From positions 1-64,000 of the forward strand of contig JALOOI010000003.1 of assembly GCA_025454495.1 (NCBI GenBank): a DNA stretch of 64,000 nucleotides, given 5' to 3'. A program made the translations under genes and the position numbers. This DNA is from Anaerolineae bacterium (GTDB lineage: Bacteria; Chloroflexota; Anaerolineae; Aggregatilineales; Phototrophicaceae). The notes under the pieces are model-generated. The model worked only from the letters and a program-made list of their open reading frames with translations, made no database searches and was not told where the DNA came from. Positions 6,486-56,846 of this stretch are shown here, one piece after another. Numbering within the stretch: the stretch's first letter is position 1; every line of letters starts with the position of its first letter.

Positions 6486-7526
6486 TCAGGCCAGGGTGTT
6501 GGAAATTTCGTAAGTCTCAATCGGCTCGGCGCGGCCCTTCACCTGGAACACACCCAGGGAGCGCCCGTAGACGAAATCGCTGGTGGCTTCATACACCCTC
6601 CGGCTGACCAGAATTTGCCCGTTATCGGCGATGCCCTGCAACCGGGCCGCCACATTGACCGTATCGCCGACGGCGGTGAAATTCATCAGCTTTTCGGTGC
6701 CCACATTGCCCACCACCACCGTCCCGCTGTGAATGCCAAAGTTGATCTTCATGCGGTGGGGTTCTGGCAGCTTCTGGTGGAACCAGTACAGCTCATCCTG
6801 GATGTGCAGCGCGGATTTAACCGCCCGCGCGATATGATCCGGCTGTTCGATGGGGGTGTTGTACAGCGCCATCACCCCATCGCCGATCAGCTTATCAATG
6901 GTGCCGTTGTATTGCAGGATGATTTTGACGATGAACGAATGATAGCGGTTGAGAAGCTGGAGCAGTGCTTCGGGATCGGTGCGTTCTGACAGGCTGGTGA
7001 AGCCCTGAAGATCGGCGAACATGACCGTCGTCGGTTGCAGCTTGCCGCCGGGCTTCACCAGGTCAGGATTTTTGAGAAGCTGCTCCACGATTTGCGGGGC
7101 GACGAAGCGTTCAAAGGTATTGCGGATCATCTCCTGGGTCACGCGCAGGGTATCGGTGGTTTCTTTGGTCTTCAGGCTGCGCTCCACCCGCGCAATCAAT
7201 TCTCGCGGGCTGAAGGGCTTGGTGAGGTAATCATCCGCGCCCACTGCCAGCCCCTTCACCCGGCTGTCCACATCGGACTGGGCCGTGAGCATGATGATGG
7301 GGATGCCGGCGGTGGCCCGGGCTTCTTTTAATTTGGCCGCCACTTCAAAGCCGGTCATGCCGGGCATGTTCACATCCAGCAAAATGAGATCGGGGAGCTG
7401 CTCGCCGGCAACGTTCAGGGCGCTGGTGCCGTTCAGGGCCTGTAAGACGGAGTGCCCGGCCATGGCCAGGATGTCTTTGACCAGTTCAATATTATCAGGG
7501 TTATCGTCTACCACCAGGATTTTCAA
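6486..7526 (-). CDS. Receiver domain fused to class III adenylate cyclase
   Basis: A 346-residue cytoplasmic fusion. Residues 1-120 are a CheY-like receiver with acidic pair D7/D8, phospho-acceptor D51 and K103. A helical linker leads to a class III cyclase catalytic domain at about 160-335. Metal-binding D172 (FADLQGF) and D216 (GDGVMALY), adenine-selective K212 and T284, and transition-state N291 and R295 are all present, so it should be active and make cAMP. Phosphorylation of the receiver presumably controls output. The start is TTG with GAGG eight bases upstream. It is the last gene of a minus-strand run kinase - receiver - receiver-cyclase. Confidence 0.9.
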   Translation of the reverse strand: MKILVVDDNPDNIELVKDILAMAGHSVLQALNGTSALNVAGEQLPDLILLDVNMPGMTGFEVAAKLKEARATAGIPIIMLTAQSDVDSRVKGLAVGADDYLTKPFSPRELIARVERSLKTKETTDTLRVTQEMIRNTFERFVAPQIVEQLLKNPDLVKPGGKLQPTTVMFADLQGFTSLSERTDPEALLQLLNRYHSFIVKIILQYNGTIDKLIGDGVMALYNTPIEQPDHIARAVKSALHIQDELYWFHQKLPEPHRMKINFGIHSGTVVVGNVGTEKLMNFTAVGDTVNVAARLQGIADNGQILVSRRVYEATSDFVYGRSLGVFQVKGRAEPIETYEISNTLA

Positions 7527-11128: not shown

Positions 11129-12697
11129 GTGGCAGAAGAAACGGTGCTGATCGTCGATGATGGCAAAGATAACCGCGACTTCATCGTCGAATACGTGCTT
11201 GAACCCAACGGTTACAAATACCTGACGGCCCGTGATGGGCTGGAAGGGCTTCAGCTTGCGCTTAAACACAAGCCGGATTTGATCCTGCTGGACCTGGAAA
11301 TGCCGCGCATGAAAGGCACCCAGGTGCTGGAACAGCTCGAAGCGCACAATCTCGATATCCCGGTGGTGCTGATGACCTTTCACGGGTCGGAGGAAATCGC
11401 CGTTGAAGTGTACCGGATGGGGGTGAAGGATTACATCAAAAAGCCCTACTACCCGGAAGAAATGCTGGAATCGATTGAACGCAGCCTGTCCGAAACGCGC
11501 CTGCGCCGGGAAAAAGAAGCCCTCACCGAGCGCGTTTTGCAGGCCAACCGCGAGCTGCAACGCCGCCTGAACGAACTGAATATCCTGTACAATGTGGGGA
11601 AAAGCGTCACCTCCATCATGGATCTGACGCGCCTGCTGCCCAACATCGTGCAGGCGACAGCGCACGTGGCCCGCGCCGAAGAAGTGCTGCTGTGCTTGAT
11701 GGAAAATGACCGCCTCATCTGCCGGGCGCATAAGCCCCCCCGCGTGACCCAGGCCAAAGCGGCCGATTTTGAAGTGAGCGATGCCTTTGTGCAGCACGTC
11801 ATCAAGACGCGGCAGCCGCTGACGGTGGGCGCGGAACAGCTCAGCCGCACGCCGCACGCCCGCAAACCTTCCTCGCTGGCCTGTGTGCCGCTGGTCATTC
11901 ATGATCGCGTCCTGGGGGTGCTGGAGGTGCTGAACTTCACCGGCAATGTGGAGGCTTTCACCACCCACGATACCTCCATGCTCAGCGCCATTGCCGATTA
12001 TGCCGCCATCGCCATCGAAAATTCGCGCAATTATGATGCCATCCGCACCTCGAAAGATAAACTGCGCGATTCATTTGAGCGTTTTGTGCCGCCGCAGGTG
12101 GTGGCCCGGGTGGTATCTAACCCGGAGGATGTGAAGCCCGGCGGCCAGCGCCAGGTGGTCAGTGTGCTGTTTGCTGATATTCGCGGTTACACCGCCTGGA
12201 GCGAAAGTGTGTCGCCGGAGCGCGTCATCGAAACGCTCAATCATTTTCTCGATCTGGCGGCCGGGGTGATTATGGGGTGGGAAGGCACGCTGGATAAATA
12301 CTTCGGCGATGGCCTGATGGCCATTTTCAATGCCCCCACCGCGCAGCCGGATCATGTGCATCGGGCGGTGGATGCTGCCCTGGCGCTGATGCGGGCGGCC
12401 CAGGAAGTGAACCAGCAGCACGGCTACCAGCTTTCCTACAGCATCGGCGTGCATACCGGCGAAGCCGTGGTGGGCTACATCGGCACCAGCCGCGCCCTCA
12501 ACTATACGGCTATCGGCGACACGGTGAACCTGGCCCGCCGCCTGCAAGAATCGGCGCAGCCGGGGCAAATTCTGGTCGATGAATCGGTGGTGAAAGTGCT
12601 GGGGAACCAGGTGCAGGCCCGGATGCTGGGTGAATTGAAGGTGAAGGGCCGCAAAAGCCCGGCCCTGGCCTATGAACTGATTGATCTCAAAGGCTGA
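11129..12697 (+). CDS. Receiver-GAF-class III adenylate cyclase fusion
   Basis: A 522-residue cytoplasmic signalling enzyme. A receiver occupies 1-120 (D10/D11, phospho-acceptor D55, K105), a coiled coil 125-155, a GAF-like domain about 155-300, and a class III cyclase 340-515. Catalytic residues are complete: D350 and D394 for metals, K390 and T460 for adenine recognition, N467 and R471 for the transition state. It should make cAMP under joint control of phosphorylation and a GAF ligand. Its cyclase domain resembles that at 6486-7526, including the shared FERFV-PPQ linker before it. The start is GTG. It diverges from the signal peptidase pair. Confidence 0.9.
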   Translation: MAEETVLIVDDGKDNRDFIVEYVLEPNGYKYLTARDGLEGLQLALKHKPDLILLDLEMPRMKGTQVLEQLEAHNLDIPVVLMTFHGSEEIAVEVYRMGVKDYIKKPYYPEEMLESIERSLSETRLRREKEALTERVLQANRELQRRLNELNILYNVGKSVTSIMDLTRLLPNIVQATAHVARAEEVLLCLMENDRLICRAHKPPRVTQAKAADFEVSDAFVQHVIKTRQPLTVGAEQLSRTPHARKPSSLACVPLVIHDRVLGVLEVLNFTGNVEAFTTHDTSMLSAIADYAAIAIENSRNYDAIRTSKDKLRDSFERFVPPQVVARVVSNPEDVKPGGQRQVVSVLFADIRGYTAWSESVSPERVIETLNHFLDLAAGVIMGWEGTLDKYFGDGLMAIFNAPTAQPDHVHRAVDAALALMRAAQEVNQQHGYQLSYSIGVHTGEAVVGYIGTSRALNYTAIGDTVNLARRLQESAQPGQILVDESVVKVLGNQVQARMLGELKVKGRKSPALAYELIDLKG

Positions 12698-47816: not shown

Positions 47817-49097
47817 ATGCACAGTGCGCCGTCACCCAATCCGCAGGATATGAATGGCAGTCTGCGCCGAATTCATCACCTGGGCAGCGCCACCTCAGAA
47901 TTATTCAGCCGCCTGTATGCCGGCCTCAGCCGTCGCTCGCGCCTGCACGACACGCGGCTGGCGCTGGAGCAAACGCAGTCGTCCATGCAGGCGCTGGCCG
48001 CGCAGCACCACCAGGCGCTGCACCGGCTGGAAGAACGTGATGCCGAAGTGGAGCGCCTGTACACCATCCTCGCCAGCCTGGAGGATGGCATCATCCTGCA
48101 AAATACCGCCGGCGAGGTGCTGCTGATGAACCAGGCGGCGGTGGCTTTTCTGGGCAGCGAGGCCGATTTTTTGAGCAGCGATCTGGCGCAGTGGTTCCGC
48201 GAATTTCAGCGGATGGACTCGACCGGCACGGACATGCTGCTTATGGATCGGGCGCGGCGTTTTGAGATCGGCGGGCGGGTGCTGGCGGCCAGCATGGCCC
48301 TGTTGGCCGCCAGCGACGAAGAACCTGCCGGCACGCTGCTGATCGTGCGCGATGTCACCCGTGACTGGCAGGCGCAGCGCCTGCGCGACAGCGTGATGAC
48401 CAGCATCTCCCATGAGCTAAAAACGCCCATGAACGTCATGCGGATCGCCAGCGAAATCCTGCTCAGCCAGCCGGAAGATGCCCCCGCCAACCGTAAAATG
48501 CTGGAAAAAATCAGCCGCAATATTGATGTGCTGGATCGCATGATTATTGAACTGCTGGATGTTTCGGAGATGAGCAGCGGCTCGTTCGACATTCGGCGCG
48601 AGCCGGTGAACCTGGAAGCGCTGCTGTGGGAAGTGCTGGAGAGCTTTCGCCAGGATGTGCAGCAGGCCAAACTGGAAATGACCCTGATGCTGCGCGATGC
48701 CGGCCAGCTTCAGTGCCTGGGGGATGCCCCGCGCCTGAAGTGGGCCATCGGGCATTTGCTGCGGAATGCGCTGGCCTATACCGAAGCCGGCGGCCGCATC
48801 ATCATTGCTGCCCGCTACAGTGAGCGCGAACAGGCGCTGATCCTCAAAGTGCGCGATACGGGTGCGGGCATCGCTGACCAGGACGTGCCGCATATTTTTG
48901 AGTTATTCTACCGCGGTATTGCCCGTAATGTTGCCGGCAAACGGATCGACCCGCGCGGGCTGGGCCAGGGGCTGTTCATCGTGCAGCGCGTGGCGGAAGC
49001 GCATGGCGGCCGCGTGCAGGTGGAAACCAGCGTGCATGAAGGCAGTATCTTCACCCTGCTGCTGCCCGTCAGCCGCGCGCTGCCGTCTGCATCTTAA
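47817..49097 (+). CDS. Soluble PAS histidine kinase
   Basis: A 426-residue kinase without membrane segments. A coiled coil spans about 45-80, a PAS-like domain 80-180 (LASLEDGIILQNTAGEVLLM), then the H-box SISHELKTPMNV with H199. ATPase motifs are N317 (LLRNALAYT), D347 in DTGAGIAD and GLGQGLFIVQRVAEAHGG. All catalytic elements are intact. It follows a receiver gene directly. The C-terminal module resembles that of the degenerate kinase at 32262-34523. An earlier in-frame ATG at 47727 lies in the receiver gene and is rejected. Confidence 0.9.
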   Translation: MHSAPSPNPQDMNGSLRRIHHLGSATSELFSRLYAGLSRRSRLHDTRLALEQTQSSMQALAAQHHQALHRLEERDAEVERLYTILASLEDGIILQNTAGEVLLMNQAAVAFLGSEADFLSSDLAQWFREFQRMDSTGTDMLLMDRARRFEIGGRVLAASMALLAASDEEPAGTLLIVRDVTRDWQAQRLRDSVMTSISHELKTPMNVMRIASEILLSQPEDAPANRKMLEKISRNIDVLDRMIIELLDVSEMSSGSFDIRREPVNLEALLWEVLESFRQDVQQAKLEMTLMLRDAGQLQCLGDAPRLKWAIGHLLRNALAYTEAGGRIIIAARYSEREQALILKVRDTGAGIADQDVPHIFELFYRGIARNVAGKRIDPRGLGQGLFIVQRVAEAHGGRVQVETSVHEGSIFTLLLPVSRALPSAS

Positions 49098-49182
49098 TGC
49101 TGGACTCATCCGGCAGGGCTTTATACAATGCGCGGCGCGTAACGCACATCGGCCGGCCAGAGTTGGTGAGGGAGATCGTATT

Positions 49183-50892
49183 GTGAGCATGTCGGGCACG
49201 GGCGCATTCACGTTTGTTCTGCACAGCCATATCCCCTATGCGCGGCTGGCCGGGCGCTGGCCCCATGGCGAAGAATGGCTGCACGAAGCCGCCACCGAAA
49301 CCTATATCCCCCTCCTGACCACGCTCTATGATCTCAAACAGCAGCAGATTCCGTTTAAGCTCACCCTGGGGCTAACCCCCGTCCTGTGCGAGCAGTTGAG
49401 CGACCCGCTGGTGCTGGAGCATCTCGTCACCTACCTGGACATGAAGATTGCCGCCGCGCTGGAGGATATGCGTCGCTTTGACCGCGACGCTGGCCAGGAC
49501 GCGCAGCATCTGTCCATGCTGGCGCAGTGGTACAACGAATGGTATCGCGGCATTAAAACGGCTTTCACGGAGCGTTTTGGCGGCGACATTATCGGGGCGT
49601 TTCGGCAACTTCAGGATGCCGGCGATGTGGAGATTGTCACCTCCGCTGCCACGCACGCCTACCTGCCGCTGCTCAGCCGCGACAGCGCCATTCGGGCGCA
49701 GCTCCGCGCCGGCATCGCCAGTTATGAACGGCATTTTGGCCGTGCGCCGCGGGCCGTGTGGCTGCCGGAATGTGCCTATCGACCGGCCTACCTCACCGAA
49801 GACGGGCAAACCCGCGCCGGGCTGGAGCGCCTGCTGGCGGAAGCGGGCTTACACCTGTTCTTCTGCGAAACCCACACCATCACCGGCGGGCAGCCGGTGG
49901 GCGTGGCCGCCGGCGATGCCATCGGCCCGTATGGCTTTGTGCGCCGGCGCTATGTGGTGCCGCCGGTGGAGACCATGCCCGCCCGCGCCGTCAGCACCTA
50001 TCAGCCGTATTTCGTCAGCGATACGGCCGCCGGCCCCGGCACACAGCAGCATACCGGGGTGATGGTCATCGGCCGCAACAAAGACACCGGCCAGCAGGTG
50101 TGGAGTTCCGATGACGGCTACCCGGGCGACTTTGATTACCGCGAATTTTACAAAAAATCGCCCACCAGCGGCTTACCCTACTGGCGCATCAGCGGCGATA
50201 ATGTGGCCCTGGCGGATAAAGATTATTATCACCCGGACTGGGCGGCCTTTAAGGTCGATCAGCACGCCGAACATTTCGCGCATCTGGTGGGCGACCTGCT
50301 GCGCGAGTATCACCGCCGGCAGGGCCGGCGCGGCCTCATCGTCGCCAGCTACGATACCGAATTATTCGGCCACTGGTGGTTTGAGGGCGTAAGCTGGATC
50401 GGTAAAGTGCTGCGCCACCTGGCAGAAGACCCGGAAGTGACCATGATCGCCGCCAGCGATTATGTGGCCGTGAACCCGCCGGAGACGACGCTGCACCTGC
50501 CGGAGAGTTCCTGGGGGGCCGGCGGCAGCCATTTTAACTGGGATAACAACGAAACGCGCTGGATGTGGCAGCCCATGGCTGAATGCGAAGCCCGCATGGA
50601 AGCCCTGGCGCAGCGCTACACCGCCCCCACCGACGATGAAACCCGCGTCCTGAACCAGGCCGGGCGCGAATTGATGCTCCTGCAAAGCTCGGACTGGCAG
50701 TTTCTGGTGACGACGGGGCAGGCCCGCGAATACGCCATTCAGCGGTTTAGCCAGCATGTGGAGCGCTTCCAGAAGCTCACCGCCAGCCTGGAGGCCGGCA
50801 GCCCCGCCCGCGCCTATGCGGATGAATTATGGGAGATTGATAAAATTTTCCCCACCATGGATTACCGCTGGTTCCGGCCGCGTTTTGAATAA
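49183..50892 (+). CDS. GH57 1,4-alpha-glucan branching enzyme
   Basis: A 569-residue GH57 enzyme of the DUF1957 type that introduces alpha-1,6 branches into glycogen. The N-terminal barrel starts FTFVLHSHIPYARLAG. The nucleophile is E196 in WLPECAYRP, and the acid/base is D391 in SYDTELFGHWWFEG. A C-terminal helical domain follows. GTG 49183 has GGAG eight bases upstream and is preferred to ATG 49189; the long upstream reading into the kinase gene is rejected. It is the first gene of the glycogen island, 86 bases after the kinase and upstream of glgA and glgC. Confidence 0.88.
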   Translation: MSMSGTGAFTFVLHSHIPYARLAGRWPHGEEWLHEAATETYIPLLTTLYDLKQQQIPFKLTLGLTPVLCEQLSDPLVLEHLVTYLDMKIAAALEDMRRFDRDAGQDAQHLSMLAQWYNEWYRGIKTAFTERFGGDIIGAFRQLQDAGDVEIVTSAATHAYLPLLSRDSAIRAQLRAGIASYERHFGRAPRAVWLPECAYRPAYLTEDGQTRAGLERLLAEAGLHLFFCETHTITGGQPVGVAAGDAIGPYGFVRRRYVVPPVETMPARAVSTYQPYFVSDTAAGPGTQQHTGVMVIGRNKDTGQQVWSSDDGYPGDFDYREFYKKSPTSGLPYWRISGDNVALADKDYYHPDWAAFKVDQHAEHFAHLVGDLLREYHRRQGRRGLIVASYDTELFGHWWFEGVSWIGKVLRHLAEDPEVTMIAASDYVAVNPPETTLHLPESSWGAGGSHFNWDNNETRWMWQPMAECEARMEALAQRYTAPTDDETRVLNQAGRELMLLQSSDWQFLVTTGQAREYAIQRFSQHVERFQKLTASLEAGSPARAYADELWEIDKIFPTMDYRWFRPRFE

Positions 50893-50922: not shown

Positions 50923-50999
50923 CAAGAGCGGGTTTGACACATTCACCTCCGGTGTCCTGCGGGCCGCCCCCGTATCCGGCAGCGTGTAAAGGGGTCTAC

Positions 51000-52466
51000 A
51001 TGAGAATTCTTCTCGTCAGCGCCGAAGCCGTACCCTTTGCTAAAGTCGGCGGGCTGGCAGATGTCGTCGGTTCCCTCCCGGCCGCGCTGCGGCAGTCGGG
51101 GCTGGATGCCAGGGTCATCATCCCCGGCTATGGCTTCATCGAACATCTCAAATATCAGATCAGCCGCCTCTTTTCGTTCGATTTTGGGCATAAGTTCGGC
51201 AGCACGCGGGTGGATGTGTATACCTGCGTTTATGACGGCGTGCCTTTTTATTTTGTGCAGGCCTGGCCCTATTTTGGTAATGAACGCGCCGTTTACCTGG
51301 GCTGGAACGAGGATGTGCCGCGCTTCATCTTCTTCAACCAGGTGGTGCTGGCGGCCGCCTGGCAGCTCCGCGAGCGCCTGGGCTGGTTCCCGGATGTCTT
51401 CCACGTCCACGACTGGCACACGGCGCTGCTGCCGTTTTTGCTGGCCGACAGCCGCTGGAAGCAGGAATGGCAGCATACGGCCAGCGTCCTCACCATTCAC
51501 AATATCGCCTACCAGGGCAACCATGTCGGCGGCTACCTGTGGCAAACCGGCATCCCCACCCGCGATCATCATCTGCTGCGTCAGTTCAATTTGACCGATA
51601 ACATGCTGGGGATCGCCACCGCCTACTGCGATATTGTGACGACCGTCAGCCCGCGTTATGCCACCGAAATTCAGTATCCCTATGCCGGCTATGAGCTGGC
51701 CGGCCTCATCCGTGCCCGCGCCAGTGATTTGCGCGGCATCCTGAACGGGATTGATACCACGCTGTGGAACCCGGAAACGGATCCCTACCTCATCAGCCGT
51801 TACCATGCCGGCAGCTTTGAGGAGCAGCGCATCATCAACAAGCGCCATTTGCAATCCTACTGCCGTTTGCCCATCCGCGATGATGTGCCGGTGATCGGCG
51901 TGGTGTCGCGGCTGACGCGCCAGAAAGGGCTGGATCTGGCGCTGCCGGCGCTGCATCGCCTGCTGGCGGAAACCGATGTGCAGTTCGTGCTGCTGGGCAC
52001 CGGCGATGCCGACCTGGAGTATGAACTGGGCTGGCTGGCGCTGCGCTTCCCGGAGAAGGCGCGGGTGTTCCTCACCTTTGATGGCGCACTGTCGCAGCAC
52101 ATTTATTCCGGCTGCGATATTTTCCTCATGCCCAGTCATTTTGAGCCGTGCGGCATCGGCCAGATGATCGCCATGCGCTACGGGGCGCTGCCGCTGGTGC
52201 GCGAAACCGGCGGCCTGGCGGATACCGTCATCAATTACGACAATGGTGATGGCGATGTGGGCACCGGGTTTGTGTTTCAGTGGGAGGAGCCGGAGGCCGT
52301 CCTGGGCACCCTGCGCTGGGCGCTGGAAACCTACTACAACCGCCCGAAGGCCTGGCGACGAATGCAGCGCCGGGCCATGCAGATGGACCTGAGCTGGAGC
52401 AGCAGCGCCGGGCAATATATCGAAGTGTATGAACTGGCAACCAGAAGACTTAAAGGAGAAGCCTGA
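51000..52466 (+). CDS. glgA: Glycogen synthase (ADP-glucose type, GT5)
   Basis: A 488-residue enzyme adding glucose from ADP-glucose to glycogen. The N-terminus [21 protein letters not shown] carries the KxGGL donor-binding loop. [11 protein letters not shown] near 134, the [10 protein letters not shown] loop near 302 and [11 protein letters not shown] near 379 (catalytic Glu region) are present. An in-frame ATG at 50934 is rejected; ATG 51000 has AAAGGGG upstream and begins the family's conserved start. Stop and glgC start overlap (TGATG). Confidence 0.95.
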
Positions 52467-53725
52467 TGAGGGTGAAAGCTGTTATCCTGGCCGGCGGGGC
52501 CGGCACACGCCTGGCCTCGTTGACGATTAAGCGGGCCAAGCCGGCCGTGCCCTTCGCCGGTAAATATCGCATTATTGATTTTGTGCTCAGCAATTGTGTC
52601 AATTCCAATATTTTTGATGTCATCATCCTCACGCAGTACCGCCCGCACAGCCTGAACGATCATGTGGGCAAGGGGCGGCCCTGGGACCTGGATCGCAGTT
52701 TTACCGGCGGCGTGCAAATGCTCCAGCCCTATAAGGGCAGCCGCGATACGGACTGGTATGCCGGCACGGCCGATGCCGTGCTGCAAAACCTCAATTTCGT
52801 CCGCAGCGGCCAGCCGGAATTTGTCCTCATCCTCTCTGGCGATCACATCTACCAGATGGATTATGACATGCTGATTCAGTATCACCGCGAAAAAGGGGCG
52901 GATGCCACCCTGTGCACCATTCGCGTGCCGCTGGATGAAGCCAATCGCTTTGGCATTGTGGATGTGGATGAGCATTACCGCATCAAAGAATTTATCGAAA
53001 AGCCGGAAAACCCGCCCGGCAACCTGGCCAATATGGGCGTATACGTCTTCAATTACGCCTCGCTGGAAAAATCGCTGCGCGAAGAGCAGGCCCGCGGCAC
53101 GCCCGATAGCGACTTTGGCAAGCACATCCTGCCGCGCATGATCGCCGAAGGCAAGCGCGTTTTTGCCTATCCTTATGGCGGTTACTGGATCGATGTGGGG
53201 ACGCTGGATGCCTACTGGGAAGCCCACATGGATTTGCTGTCGTCGCCGCCGTCGCTCAATTTGAATGACCGTACCTGGGTCATCCACACGCGCAGCGAAG
53301 AACGGCCGCCGGTGCGGGTGGAAACCACCGCTACCGTCATCAACAGCCTCATCACCGATGGCGCGGTGATTGCCGAAGGGGCACATGTAGAACGCTCGGT
53401 GCTGTCGCCGGGGGTGTATGTGGGCCCCGGGGCCGTCGTGCGCGACTCGGTGGTGCTGACGGATGCCTACATCGAAGCCGGGGCGCGGGTAGAACGCTGC
53501 ATCCTGGATAAAATTGCCGTCATCGGCCAGGGCGCGACGGTGGGCAGCATGAGCGAGGTCATCAAGATTACTGCGGTGGGCAAAAATGCCCATGTACCGC
53601 CGGGGTATACGGTGGGGGCGGGCAGCATCCTGGGGACGGATGTGAGCGCGAAAGACTTTGAAAAATATGCCAGCAAAGTAGTGCCGCCGGGGACGAAGAT
53701 GGGTTTTTCCGGGCGCAAAGATTAG
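52466..53725 (+). CDS. glgC: Glucose-1-phosphate adenylyltransferase
   Basis: A 419-residue enzyme making ADP-glucose, the committed step of glycogen synthesis. The N-terminal loop [20 protein letters not shown], substrate-site [10 protein letters not shown] near 128, [10 protein letters not shown] near 173, and a C-terminal left-handed beta helix of hexapeptide repeats (about 290-400) fit the bacterial GlgC family, which is allosterically regulated by glycolytic intermediates. It is translationally coupled to glgA and followed by a terminator at 53742-53766. Confidence 0.95.
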
Positions 53726-53782: not shown

Positions 53783-54079
53783 TTACGTCGTCACCACCGA
53801 ATTATCGCCGCTGAAGGGATTGGGCACATACTTATCGGCTTCCCAGTCATTGTGCCATTCGGTGCCATTGATGAGATAACGGAACTGGTACGATTTGCCC
53901 GCTTCCAGATCGAGCGTGATCTTAAAGCGGCCATCTTTCAGCAGCTCCATCAGGGTGGCGCGTTCATCCCACTGGTTAAAATCGCCGACCAGGTGAACGG
54001 TTTCCGCCTTCAGATCTGCCTGGGTGTAGAATGTCACCTTGCAGATAGCATTTTTCTTCACGTATTGTTTCTTCAACAT
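53783..54079 (-). CDS. Stand-alone CBM48/AMPK-type glycogen-binding protein
   Basis: A 98-residue protein consisting only of an isoamylase N-terminal-like (early-set) domain. VTFYTQADLKAETVHLVGDF, NQWDE, YQFRYLING, W-N-D and a final NPF-GDNS are typical of CBM48/AMPK glycogen-binding modules. It has no catalytic domain. Placed between glgC and glgP, it may bring proteins to glycogen granules or sense glycogen. The start has GGAG upstream. It is divergent from glgP over a 202-base region with a CRP-like palindrome. Confidence 0.82.
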   Translation of the reverse strand: MLKKQYVKKNAICKVTFYTQADLKAETVHLVGDFNQWDERATLMELLKDGRFKITLDLEAGKSYQFRYLINGTEWHNDWEADKYVPNPFSGDNSVVTT

Positions 54080-54116
54080 GCCTCACTCCGTGAACCCTCA
54101 TTTTCGTGCGCGGTGC

Positions 54117-54125
54117 ATTGTAGCA
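54117..54125 (-). promoter_or_regulatory. Extended -10 promoter of the CBM48-like gene
   Basis: On the minus strand TGC-TACAAT, expected start near 54110, 31 bases before the ATG at 54079. Confidence 0.55.
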
Positions 54126-54151
54126 CAATCTCCTGGCACGCACAGATCAAA

Positions 54152-54169
54152 TTGTGAGAATTATCACAA
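54152..54169. promoter_or_regulatory. CRP/FNR-type palindrome between CBM48-like gene and glgP
   Basis: TTGTGA-GAATTA-TCACAA: two perfect TGTGA half-sites separated by six bases, the consensus of cAMP receptor protein sites. Sixteen of the 18 bases are symmetric. It is centred about 50 bases upstream of the predicted start of the CBM48-like gene and about 67 bases upstream of a weak glgP start. Confidence 0.6.
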
Positions 54170-54215
54170 CAGGCCAACATGATAATCGTAAGGTGCAATT
54201 TTACGGCGCAGCGGC

Positions 54216-54221
54216 TAAAAT
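54216..54221 (+). promoter_or_regulatory. Weak -10 candidate for glgP
   Basis: TAAAAT 60 bases before the glgP ATG, without a good -35; GATAAT at 54181-54186 is an alternative. A poor core promoter would fit dependence on an activator. Confidence 0.3.
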
Positions 54222-54281
54222 GGCGGCGGGGTCAGCAATGATCTCAACCAACCTTGCCATTCAGACAGGAGCAATGCCAGT

Positions 54282-56846
54282 ATGGTCAAGCCTGTAGCAA
54301 CCGTGAGCGTGGCCCCCAGACTGCCCAAACCCCTTGCACGCCTCATGGAATTAGCCTCTAACCTGCGCTTCTCGTGGGATCAGGAAACGGTGGCCCTGTT
54401 CCGCCGCCTGGACCCGGAACTGTGGGAAGTGACGAACCATAACCCGGTGGCGCTGCTGGGACGCATTCAACAGGAACGCCTGGAGAGCGCGAAGAATGAT
54501 CCCGCGTTCATGGCGCATCTGGAGCGCGTCAGCGAAGATTTTGATGCCTATATGGCCGCTAAAAAGACGTGGTACAAAGACACCTATGGCAGCCAGAAGA
54601 AAGCGCCGGTGATCGCCTATTTTTCGATGGAGTTCGGGCTGACGGAATGCCTGCAAAATTATTCCGGCGGTCTGGGTGTCCTCAGTGGCGACCACCTGAA
54701 AAGCGCCAGCGACCTGGGCCTGCCGCTGGTGGGCGTGGGGCTGCTGTACCAGGAAGGCTATTTTCAGCAGTATCTCAATGTGGATGGCTGGCAGCAGGAG
54801 CTGTATCCCATCAACGACTTTCCCAACCTGCCGCTGACGCTGGAACGCGATAAAGACGGCCATCCCATCAAGATCAGCGTGGAGCTGCCGGGCCGCAAAC
54901 TGTACGCGCAAATCTGGCGGGTGCAGGTGGGGCGCACCCCGCTGCTGCTGCTGGATTCTAACATCCCGGATAACCGCGAGGATGACCGCAACCTGACCGA
55001 CCGGCTGTATGGCGGCGACCGTCGCACCCGCATTCGCCAGGAAATTCTGCTGGGCATCGGCGGCATTCGGGCGCTGGAAGCGCTGGCCATGCGCCCGGAC
55101 GTGTGCCACATGAACGAAGGCCACTCCGCCTTTTTGATGCTGGAACGCATTCGCATCATGATGCGCGAGAAGGGCATCAATTTTTACCAGGCGAAAGAAA
55201 TCGTCGCCTCCAGCACGGTGTTCACCGTGCATACGCCGGTGCCGGCCGGGCTGGAACGCTTCGGCTTTGACCTGATCGATGAGCATTTCACCGATTACAT
55301 GCGGGAACTGGGCCTCAACCGCGATCAATTCCTGAACCTGGGGCGCGAGAACATGGGCACTTATGAACTGTTCTCCATGTCGGTGATGGCGCTGGACATG
55401 TCTTACGGGGCCAATGGCGTGGCCAAACTGCATGGCGTGGTCTCCCGCGATATGTGGAACTGGGTGTATCCCAACGTCCCCAAAGAGGAAGTGCCCATTA
55501 CCGCCGTCACCAACGGGGTGCATGTGCAAACCTGGGTCAGCAACGAAATGGCCACCCTGTTTGATCGCTATCTTGACCCCACCTGGCGCACGCAGGAATG
55601 GCGCAAAGAAGCGTGGGCCGGGGTGGATAACATCCCCGATTCAGAATTGTGGCGCACGCATTCGCGCCGGCGCGAGCGCCTGGTGGCCTTCTGCCGGGAA
55701 CGGCTGAAGCAGCAGCTCATTCATCGCGGGGCCAGCAAGAGCGAAATCGATGCCGCCGATGAAGTGCTGAACCCGGATGCGCTGACGATTGGCTTTGCCC
55801 GCCGCTTTGCCACCTACAAACGCGCCACCATGATCTTCCGCGATTTAAACCGGCTGCGTAAAATCCTGCACAGTGCCGATCGCCCGGTGCAGTTCATCTT
55901 TGCCGGCAAAGCCCACCCGCACGATAACGAAGGCAAGGCCTTCATCAAGGAAATTGTGCGCATCGCCAGCCAGGAGGAATTCCGCCATTCCATCGTCTTC
56001 CTGGAAAATTATGATATGAACGTCGCCCGCTACCTGTTGCAGGGCTGCGATGTGTGGCTGAACAACCCGCGCCGCCCCAAAGAAGCCAGCGGCACCAGCG
56101 GCATGAAAGGCATCTTCAACGGCTGCCTTAACTTCAGCATTCTGGATGGCTGGTGGGATGAAGCGTATCAGCCGGAAGTGGGCTGGGCCATTGGCAACGG
56201 CGAAGAATACCCCGAAAGCCAGTCCGGCGAGCAGGATCGCATCGAAAGCGAAGCGCTGTACAACATCCTGGAGAAAGACATCATCACCCGCTTCTATGAT
56301 CGCGGGCGGGATGCGCTGCCGCGGAGCTGGATTAGCATGATGAAAAATGCCATCCGGGAGCTTGCGCCGGTGTTCACCACGCATCGTATGGTGCAGGAAT
56401 ACACGCAGCAGTTCTACATCCCCAACTATGAGCGCTTCATCAAGATGACGCAGCCGAACATGGACGCGGCGCTGGCCTACACCGGCTGGCGGGCCCAGGT
56501 GCGCGGCGCGTGGAATCAAATTCGGGTGGTGTCCGTTAATGTGGATAAAGCGGCCGTCACCGTGGGGGCCAAAAGCCCCGTGACGGCGGTCATTCACCTG
56601 GGGGCCCTGACACCGAAAGATGTCCGGGTGCAGTTATACTACGGGGCGCTGAATACGCGGGGCGAAATCGTCAACGGGCAGGCGCTGGATATGACGCTGG
56701 AAGCCAGCAACGGCGGCGGGCTGTATACGTTTAAGACCACGTATCAGTATGCCACGTCGGGCGAAACGGGCTTCTCGGTGCGGGTGCTGCCGTATCATGA
56801 ATTTATGCATACGCTGTTCCAGCCCGGCATGATTACCTGGGCCTGA
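54282..56846 (+). CDS. glgP: Alpha-glucan (glycogen) phosphorylase, GT35
   Basis: An 854-residue phosphorylase of the Thermotoga/archaeal type, releasing glucose 1-phosphate from glycogen. The N-terminal domain begins KPLARLMELASNLRFSWD, a feature of this subgroup. Active-site parts are AYFSMEFGL, NYSGGLGVLSGDHLKSASD, MNEGHSAF and EASGTSGMKG, the last around the pyridoxal-phosphate site. A GGAG ribosome site lies ten bases upstream. It is the degradation arm of the glycogen island and is followed by a terminator. Confidence 0.95.
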   Translation: MVKPVATVSVAPRLPKPLARLMELASNLRFSWDQETVALFRRLDPELWEVTNHNPVALLGRIQQERLESAKNDPAFMAHLERVSEDFDAYMAAKKTWYKDTYGSQKKAPVIAYFSMEFGLTECLQNYSGGLGVLSGDHLKSASDLGLPLVGVGLLYQEGYFQQYLNVDGWQQELYPINDFPNLPLTLERDKDGHPIKISVELPGRKLYAQIWRVQVGRTPLLLLDSNIPDNREDDRNLTDRLYGGDRRTRIRQEILLGIGGIRALEALAMRPDVCHMNEGHSAFLMLERIRIMMREKGINFYQAKEIVASSTVFTVHTPVPAGLERFGFDLIDEHFTDYMRELGLNRDQFLNLGRENMGTYELFSMSVMALDMSYGANGVAKLHGVVSRDMWNWVYPNVPKEEVPITAVTNGVHVQTWVSNEMATLFDRYLDPTWRTQEWRKEAWAGVDNIPDSELWRTHSRRRERLVAFCRERLKQQLIHRGASKSEIDAADEVLNPDALTIGFARRFATYKRATMIFRDLNRLRKILHSADRPVQFIFAGKAHPHDNEGKAFIKEIVRIASQEEFRHSIVFLENYDMNVARYLLQGCDVWLNNPRRPKEASGTSGMKGIFNGCLNFSILDGWWDEAYQPEVGWAIGNGEEYPESQSGEQDRIESEALYNILEKDIITRFYDRGRDALPRSWISMMKNAIRELAPVFTTHRMVQEYTQQFYIPNYERFIKMTQPNMDAALAYTGWRAQVRGAWNQIRVVSVNVDKAAVTVGAKSPVTAVIHLGALTPKDVRVQLYYGALNTRGEIVNGQALDMTLEASNGGGLYTFKTTYQYATSGETGFSVRVLPYHEFMHTLFQPGMITWA

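What the first reader, a model, noticed from the sequence alone, without database searches (positions are those of the whole stretch)
54152..54169. Perfect CRP-type operator between divergent glycogen genes
TGTGA-N6-TCACA is seen directly, in the 202-base region shared by glgP and a stand-alone glycogen-binding protein. Ten fixed bases are unlikely by chance in a GC-rich 64-kb window (about 0.06 expected for equal base use). Two intact adenylate cyclases are encoded in the same window, so cAMP control of glycogen breakdown is a testable circuit outside the enterobacteria.
Basis: partly seen in the sequence, partly recalled or inferred. Interest (0 to 1): 0.72.

Follow-up and report, generated by a model that had tools for sequence, protein, structure and literature searches.

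The report
Rex-like redox operator beside glycogen phosphorylase
The palindrome between two glycogen genes is real and looks like a switch site of a conserved respiration regulon, but it fits the NADH-sensing repressor Rex better than a cAMP-CRP switch; the binding protein has not been shown.

Summary
The palindrome TTGTGA-N6-TCACAA exists at 54152-54169, in the 202-base gap between glgP and a divergent CBM48 gene. It is the only TGTGA-N6-TCACA in the window (0.03 expected). The pattern occurs 13 times in this Chloroflexota genome, against 0 for the reversed control, mostly upstream of genes, several of them respiratory (type II NADH dehydrogenase, CcmE/F). The operator class is conserved: 25 of 27 NDH-2 upstream regions (30 loci fetched) carry it within two mismatches. 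A matrix built from NDH-2 operators hits rex promoters (17 of 19) but not promoters of the family's commonest CRP-type regulator (3 of 29). The window site matches the Thermotoga maritima Rex operator at 17 of 22 and the Staphylococcus aureus Rex consensus at 16 of 18, but the E. coli CRP consensus at 13 of 22. None of the three CRP/FNR regulators found keeps the cAMP-pocket arginine. Best reading: a Rex (NADH/NAD+) operator tying glycogen breakdown to respiration. Weak points: rex is not in this 91%-complete assembly (54 of 60 relatives have a strong match); site counts follow a CRP-type gene more than Rex; at glgP the site is clearly kept only in the one congener, at a shifted position. cAMP control is not supported.

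The parts
54152..54169 (.). 18-bp palindromic operator TTGTGAGAATTATCACAA (core TGTGA-N6-TCACA at 54153-54168)
   Evidence: top-scoring place of the NDH-2-derived matrix in the whole window, 16.7 against 10.1 for the next
54282..56846 (+). glgP-type alpha-glucan phosphorylase (DUF3417 + PF00343, TIGR02094), putative target
53783..54079 (-). 98-aa stand-alone CBM48/AMPK1_CBM glycogen-binding protein, divergent, putative target
54193..54221 (+). possible glgP promoter GTGCAA-17-TAAAAT; GTGCAATTTT is kept in the congener
   Evidence: read by eye; the consensus scan found no promoter above its threshold
54117..54125 (-). possible extended -10 (TGCTACAAT) of the CBM48 gene
   Evidence: read by eye; similar letters in L121, L124, L126; not found by the scan
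52466..53725 (+). glgC, ADP-glucose pyrophosphorylase-type (context)
50934..52466 (+). glgA, glycogen synthase (context)
48862..50892 (+). GH57-type branching enzyme; the ORF start is probably too far upstream (context)

Best explanation
The palindrome is an operator of the Rex type. Rex is a homodimeric repressor that binds TTGTGA-N6-TCACAA-like sites with NAD+ and lets go when NADH rises. In this Chloroflexota lineage it would repress NDH-2, cytochrome c maturation and other redox genes, and in this genus also the divergent glgP-CBM48 pair, so that glycogen is broken down when NADH accumulates, for example when electron acceptors run short. Shown here: the site, its enrichment, the conserved operator class at NDH-2, its recurrence at rex promoters, and rex in nearly all relatives. 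Inferred: that Rex is the binder in this organism, that glgP/CBM48 is repressed by it, and the NADH logic.
For: 13 genome sites against 0 reversed controls; 290 against 42 over 37 family genomes. Of the 13 sites, 11 are called intergenic; nearby genes include NDH-2, CcmE-CcmF, DoxX and FAD oxidoreductase. Orthologues of five of these gene sets (DoxX, DJC28/response regulator, NDH-2, CcmE, FAD_binding_3) carry perfect sites in one or more relatives; G001 and G031 add PEPCK, ldh/mdh and ferrochelatase. NDH-2 upstream regions: 11 perfect, 10 with one, 4 with two mismatches, 2 none, of 27 parsed out of 30 fetched. The operator is kept in 8 of 8 parsed f3, f4 and f6 genomes, which lack the C146 orthologue; one of them, G041, has Rex and no listed CRP/FNR match over an HTH. 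Matrix from 23 NDH-2 operators: rex promoters 17 of 19 at p<=0.05 (Fisher 3e-15), C146 3 of 29 (0.45), C85 0 of 7, C126 2 of 11. Window intergene 16.7 (4 of 5000 shuffles reach it), congener 21.0 (1 of 5000). Window site 17 of 22 to the T. maritima Rex operator (printed in PMC8836258, passages) and 16 of 18 to the S. aureus consensus (PMC2883068, passages), 0 of 500 shuffles each; E. coli CRP consensus (recalled) 13 of 22, 76 of 500. The Rex of relative G031 is nearest T. maritima Rex among solved structures.
Against: No PF06971 match in the window's own genome; completeness 91.39%, so absence may be an assembly gap, but that was not shown. Rex presence does not go with site number in the family (p 0.34), while C146 presence does (p 0.019) and NDH-2 presence does (p 0.009), none corrected for kinship. 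Rex-positive G017, G019, G033 and G035 have only 1-2 sites. At glgP only 5 of 55 upstream regions score 10 or more, and the congener's site stands 56 rather than 24 bases from the shared promoter letters, so the aligner does not pair them. The site does not overlap either by-eye promoter, which is unusual for a repressor.
Confidence: 0.58

Rival explanations
1. The site belongs to a CRP/FNR-family regulator that does not use cAMP, most likely the family-wide C146 type, which keeps the CRP recognition residues RExxxR but carries FNEVAAVDGGxNP in place of the cAMP cassette and would sense some other signal.
For: C146 is in 29 of 37 family genomes, all 29 with R180, E181 and R185 as in CRP; genomes with it have more sites (8.9 against 3.9 on average, p 0.019). 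G031, where C146 is the only listed CRP/FNR, has 9 sites against 0 control.
Against: The operator stays at NDH-2 in f3, f4 and f6 genomes without a C146 orthologue; C146 promoters do not carry it (3 of 29); the flanks are T...A as in Rex, 18 of 23 each side, not A...T.
Confidence: 0.2
2. One reading: a cAMP-bound CRP binds the site and controls glycogen breakdown, with cAMP from the two cyclases in the window.
For: TGTGA-N6-TCACA equals the CRP core; three CRP/FNR regulators and two PF00211 cyclases exist.
Against: R82/S83 are N/P, H/Y and Y/P in the three regulators; the best CRP-consensus match of the gap is 13 of 22, reached by 76 of 500 shuffles. cAMP may instead act through CNB-only proteins.
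Confidence: 0.07
3. The operator class is real, but the copy at glgP is a chance or decaying match without function.
For: Not kept in most relatives' glgP upstream regions; position differs in the congener; no overlap with a promoter call.
Against: Top score in 64 kb, next 10.1; the congener has a strong site too (21.0).
Confidence: 0.15

Closest known systems
Rex operators (ROP; S. aureus TTGTGAAW4TTCACAA; T. maritima TM0201 operator)
   Same: Same palindrome, length and spacing; 16 of 18 and 17 of 22 letters; NDH-2 as target, cf. Gyan et al. 2006 on Rex and Ndh in B. subtilis (title seen in a reference list).
   Different: Inner bases G...A instead of A...T; glgP-CBM48 as target; rex not found in this assembly.
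E. coli CRP site and regulon
   Same: Core TGTGA-N6-TCACA.
   Different: Flanks T...A instead of A...T; regulators lack the cAMP arginine; many neighbouring genes are respiratory rather than carbon-catabolic.
FNR sites (TTGAT-N4-ATCAA, recalled)
   Same: C126 regulator has an FNR-like helix.
   Different: Different half-site; C126 occurs in few relatives.

Membership tests
Rex operator | TTGTGA-N6-TCACAA inverted repeat close to the consensus | tested here: met
   16 of 18 and 17 of 22
Rex operator | Same operator class at rex and NDH-2 in the lineage | tested here: met
   17 of 19 rex promoters; 25 of 27 NDH-2 upstream regions
Rex operator | A rex gene in the same genome | tested here: inconclusive
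   None in G000, 91.39% complete; strong match in 54 of 60 relatives including the congener
Rex operator | NADH-sensitive binding of Rex to this site | not testable with these tools
   needs gel shift
cAMP-CRP operator | Core TGTGA-N6-TCACA | tested here: met
cAMP-CRP operator | CRP-type flanks and overall consensus | tested here: not met
   13 of 22, 76 of 500 shuffles as good
cAMP-CRP operator | A regulator with CRP helix and cAMP pocket (E72, R82, S83) in the genome | tested here: not met
   C146 has the helix but N82/P83; C85 and C126 lack the pocket

The most novel reading that the evidence does not exclude
In this Chloroflexota genus an NADH-sensing Rex directly gates glycogen mobilisation (glgP and a stand-alone glycogen-binding CBM48 protein) together with the respiratory chain, so that stored glycogen is spent in step with redox state rather than with cAMP or carbon supply.
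Probability: 0.4. Interest if true: 0.5.

Novelty: new member of a known kind. Interest (0 to 1): 0.4.

Why it matters
If true, glycogen breakdown in uncultured Chloroflexota answers to the NADH/NAD+ balance, and a site read as a cAMP-CRP operator by its core letters alone is a case of the known likeness between CRP and Rex palindromes. The operator matrix from NDH-2 gives a way to map a Rex regulon in lineages without genetics.

Tried and rejected
cAMP-CRP as binder: rejected as best reading because of the missing pocket residues and the poor consensus match. FNR-type C126 and NtcA/other C85 regulators: few relatives carry them and their promoters do not carry the operator clearly. Conservation of the glgP site in 79 of 80 distant loci (L106 had no upstream DNA) by mismatch count: best counts 3 with one, 17 with two, 35 with three, 23 with four, 1 with five mismatches, little beyond chance. 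The same 16-mer in G052 (L261) turned out not to be at glgP. Rex family search in the own genome was negative and first made Rex look unlikely; the search in relatives reversed that. Global alignment of the two congeners' gaps does not pair the operators. Promoter scan found nothing above threshold. Rows dropped: for the matrix, 23 of 30 NDH-2 loci were used; three were not parsed (L352, L362, L363), G008 and G044 had no site, G060 was dropped for distance (-249) and G000 was left out on purpose; for G022 and G051 I took the nearer of two equal hits. In one search one of 20 rex loci (L319) and one of 12 C126 loci gave no usable upstream. In one search seven of 30 glgP loci were not parsed. Literature: searches; no paper linking Rex to glgP was seen (2 listed; passages of PMC9600882 read, PMC13421787 not read); Ravcheev 2012 could not be read.

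Full report
The observation. It is the only TGTGA-N6-TCACA in the window, 0.03 expected. The neighbours are as named: alpha-glucan phosphorylase of the TIGR02094 kind, glgC, glgA and a GH57 branching enzyme. The window lies in a 4.74-Mb, 382-contig assembly of 91.39% completeness; relatives found by glgP are named Anaerolineae and other Chloroflexota.

It is one of a set. The genome holds 13 such sites and none of the reversed control pattern. Eleven of the 13 are called intergenic; the other two fall in a doubtful N-terminal extension and a weak 91-aa frame. Nearby genes include NDH-2, CcmE-CcmF, two sites before DoxX, a FAD oxidoreductase, a LacI regulator, a DnaJ-C28 protein next to a response regulator, GT87 and others. 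Orthologues of five of these gene sets carry perfect sites in relatives, NDH-2 as far as another family of the order. Perfect sites in G001 and G031 also stand before PEPCK, lactate/malate dehydrogenase and ferrochelatase; other targets there are not redox genes (tRNA synthetases, ABC proteins). Over 37 family genomes there are 290 sites against 42 controls, over 24 genomes of other families 148 against 25.

Which protein. Three CRP/FNR regulators with PF13545 were found in the genome. Aligned to CRP, C146 has the CRP recognition residues but N/P where CRP has R82/S83; so have all 29 family members of that type; C85 and C126 lack the pocket (CRP numbering recalled). None reaches a named NCBIfam cut-off. 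Six further proteins have a cyclic-nucleotide domain without the HTH.

Rex. The palindrome is also that of Rex. No Rex was found in the own genome, but 54 of 60 relatives have a strong PF06971 match, the congener among them; the six without one have completeness of 94, 85, 68, 88, 85 and 82%. The Rex of G031 passes the NCBIfam Rex subfamily cut-off and is nearest T. maritima Rex in the PDB. Upstream of NDH-2 (named from its nearest solved structures) the operator is present within two mismatches in 25 of 27 parsed regions, 11 of them perfect; one of the 25 (G060) lies far upstream at -249. It is kept in eight f3, f4 and f6 genomes without a C146 orthologue. A matrix from 23 of these operators finds matches in 17 of 19 rex promoters, 3 of 29 C146 promoters, 0 of 7 C85 and 2 of 11 C126 promoters. 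Autoregulation of rex plus NDH-2 is what a Rex regulon looks like in other bacteria.

The window site itself. It is the best match of that matrix in 64 kb (16.7, next 10.1; 3 of 200 shuffled windows reach it) and in its gap 4 of 5000 shuffles reach it; an earlier run gave 0 of 2000. The congener G001 has ATTGTGCAACTTGTCACAAT, score 21.0, 1 of 5000 shuffles, 159 bases before glgP; it is one mismatch from the strict pattern. Among 55 named glgP loci (L040-L094) 8 have p<=0.05 and 5 score 10 or more, one of them the congener itself. The site agrees with the T. maritima TM0201 operator at 17 of 22 (0 of 500 shuffles) and the S. aureus Rex consensus at 16 of 18 (0 of 500), with the CRP consensus at 13 of 22 (76 of 500).

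Against. Rex is not seen in this assembly. In the family, site number goes with C146 (8.9 against 3.9, p 0.019) and with NDH-2 (p 0.009), not with Rex (p 0.34), without correction for kinship; Rex is so common that the last test has little power. Four Rex-positive genomes without NDH-2 (G017, G019, G033, G035) have 1-2 sites. The site does not overlap either promoter that I read by eye, and the scan found no promoter. One site of the 13 (L023) fits the CRP consensus better (17 of 22), and a mixture of two regulators on the same palindrome is not excluded.

Mechanism. Most likely Rex holds the site with NAD+ and leaves it as NADH rises, freeing glgP and the CBM48 gene when electron acceptors run short. 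The binding, the repression and the direction of control are inference. Published Rex mechanism is taken from passages of PMC8836258 and PMC2883068.

Verdict. A real operator of a conserved redox-type regulon, filed as a probable new member of a known kind; the cAMP reading is not supported.

Noticed in passing
L035:2863-3300, L036:5180-5698, L034 (C77), L037:4581-5036, L038:3130-5106, L039:4092-4622: Six proteins of the genome have a cyclic-nucleotide-binding domain but no HTH; three keep an E...R-S or R-N cassette and are candidate cAMP receptors.
   Followed up: partly
L233, L234, L235, L225, L258: Tandem pairs of CRP/FNR genes in several relatives (FGSCPLF-type and FGAESL-type pockets); TGTGAC-N4-GTCACA sites lie close to such pairs in G039, G049, G052 and G054.
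   Followed up: no
L033:5943-6662 and L150-L178: Family-wide CRP-type regulator with the invariant pocket FNEVAAVDGGxNP and a CRP-like recognition helix; ligand unknown.
   Followed up: partly
window 53783-54281 and L040-L149: The divergent pair CBM48-glgP recurs in many Anaerolineae glgP loci, which suggests a working link between the small CBM48 protein and phosphorylase.
   Followed up: no
window 6486-7526 and 11129-12697: Two class III cyclases with receiver domains, one also with GAF, within 6 kb of each other.
   Followed up: partly
L025 (C159 end) and L034 (C77 start): The NDH-2 gene of the own genome is split over two contig ends (N-terminal part on C159, C-terminal part on C77), so the two contigs probably adjoin.
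   Followed up: no
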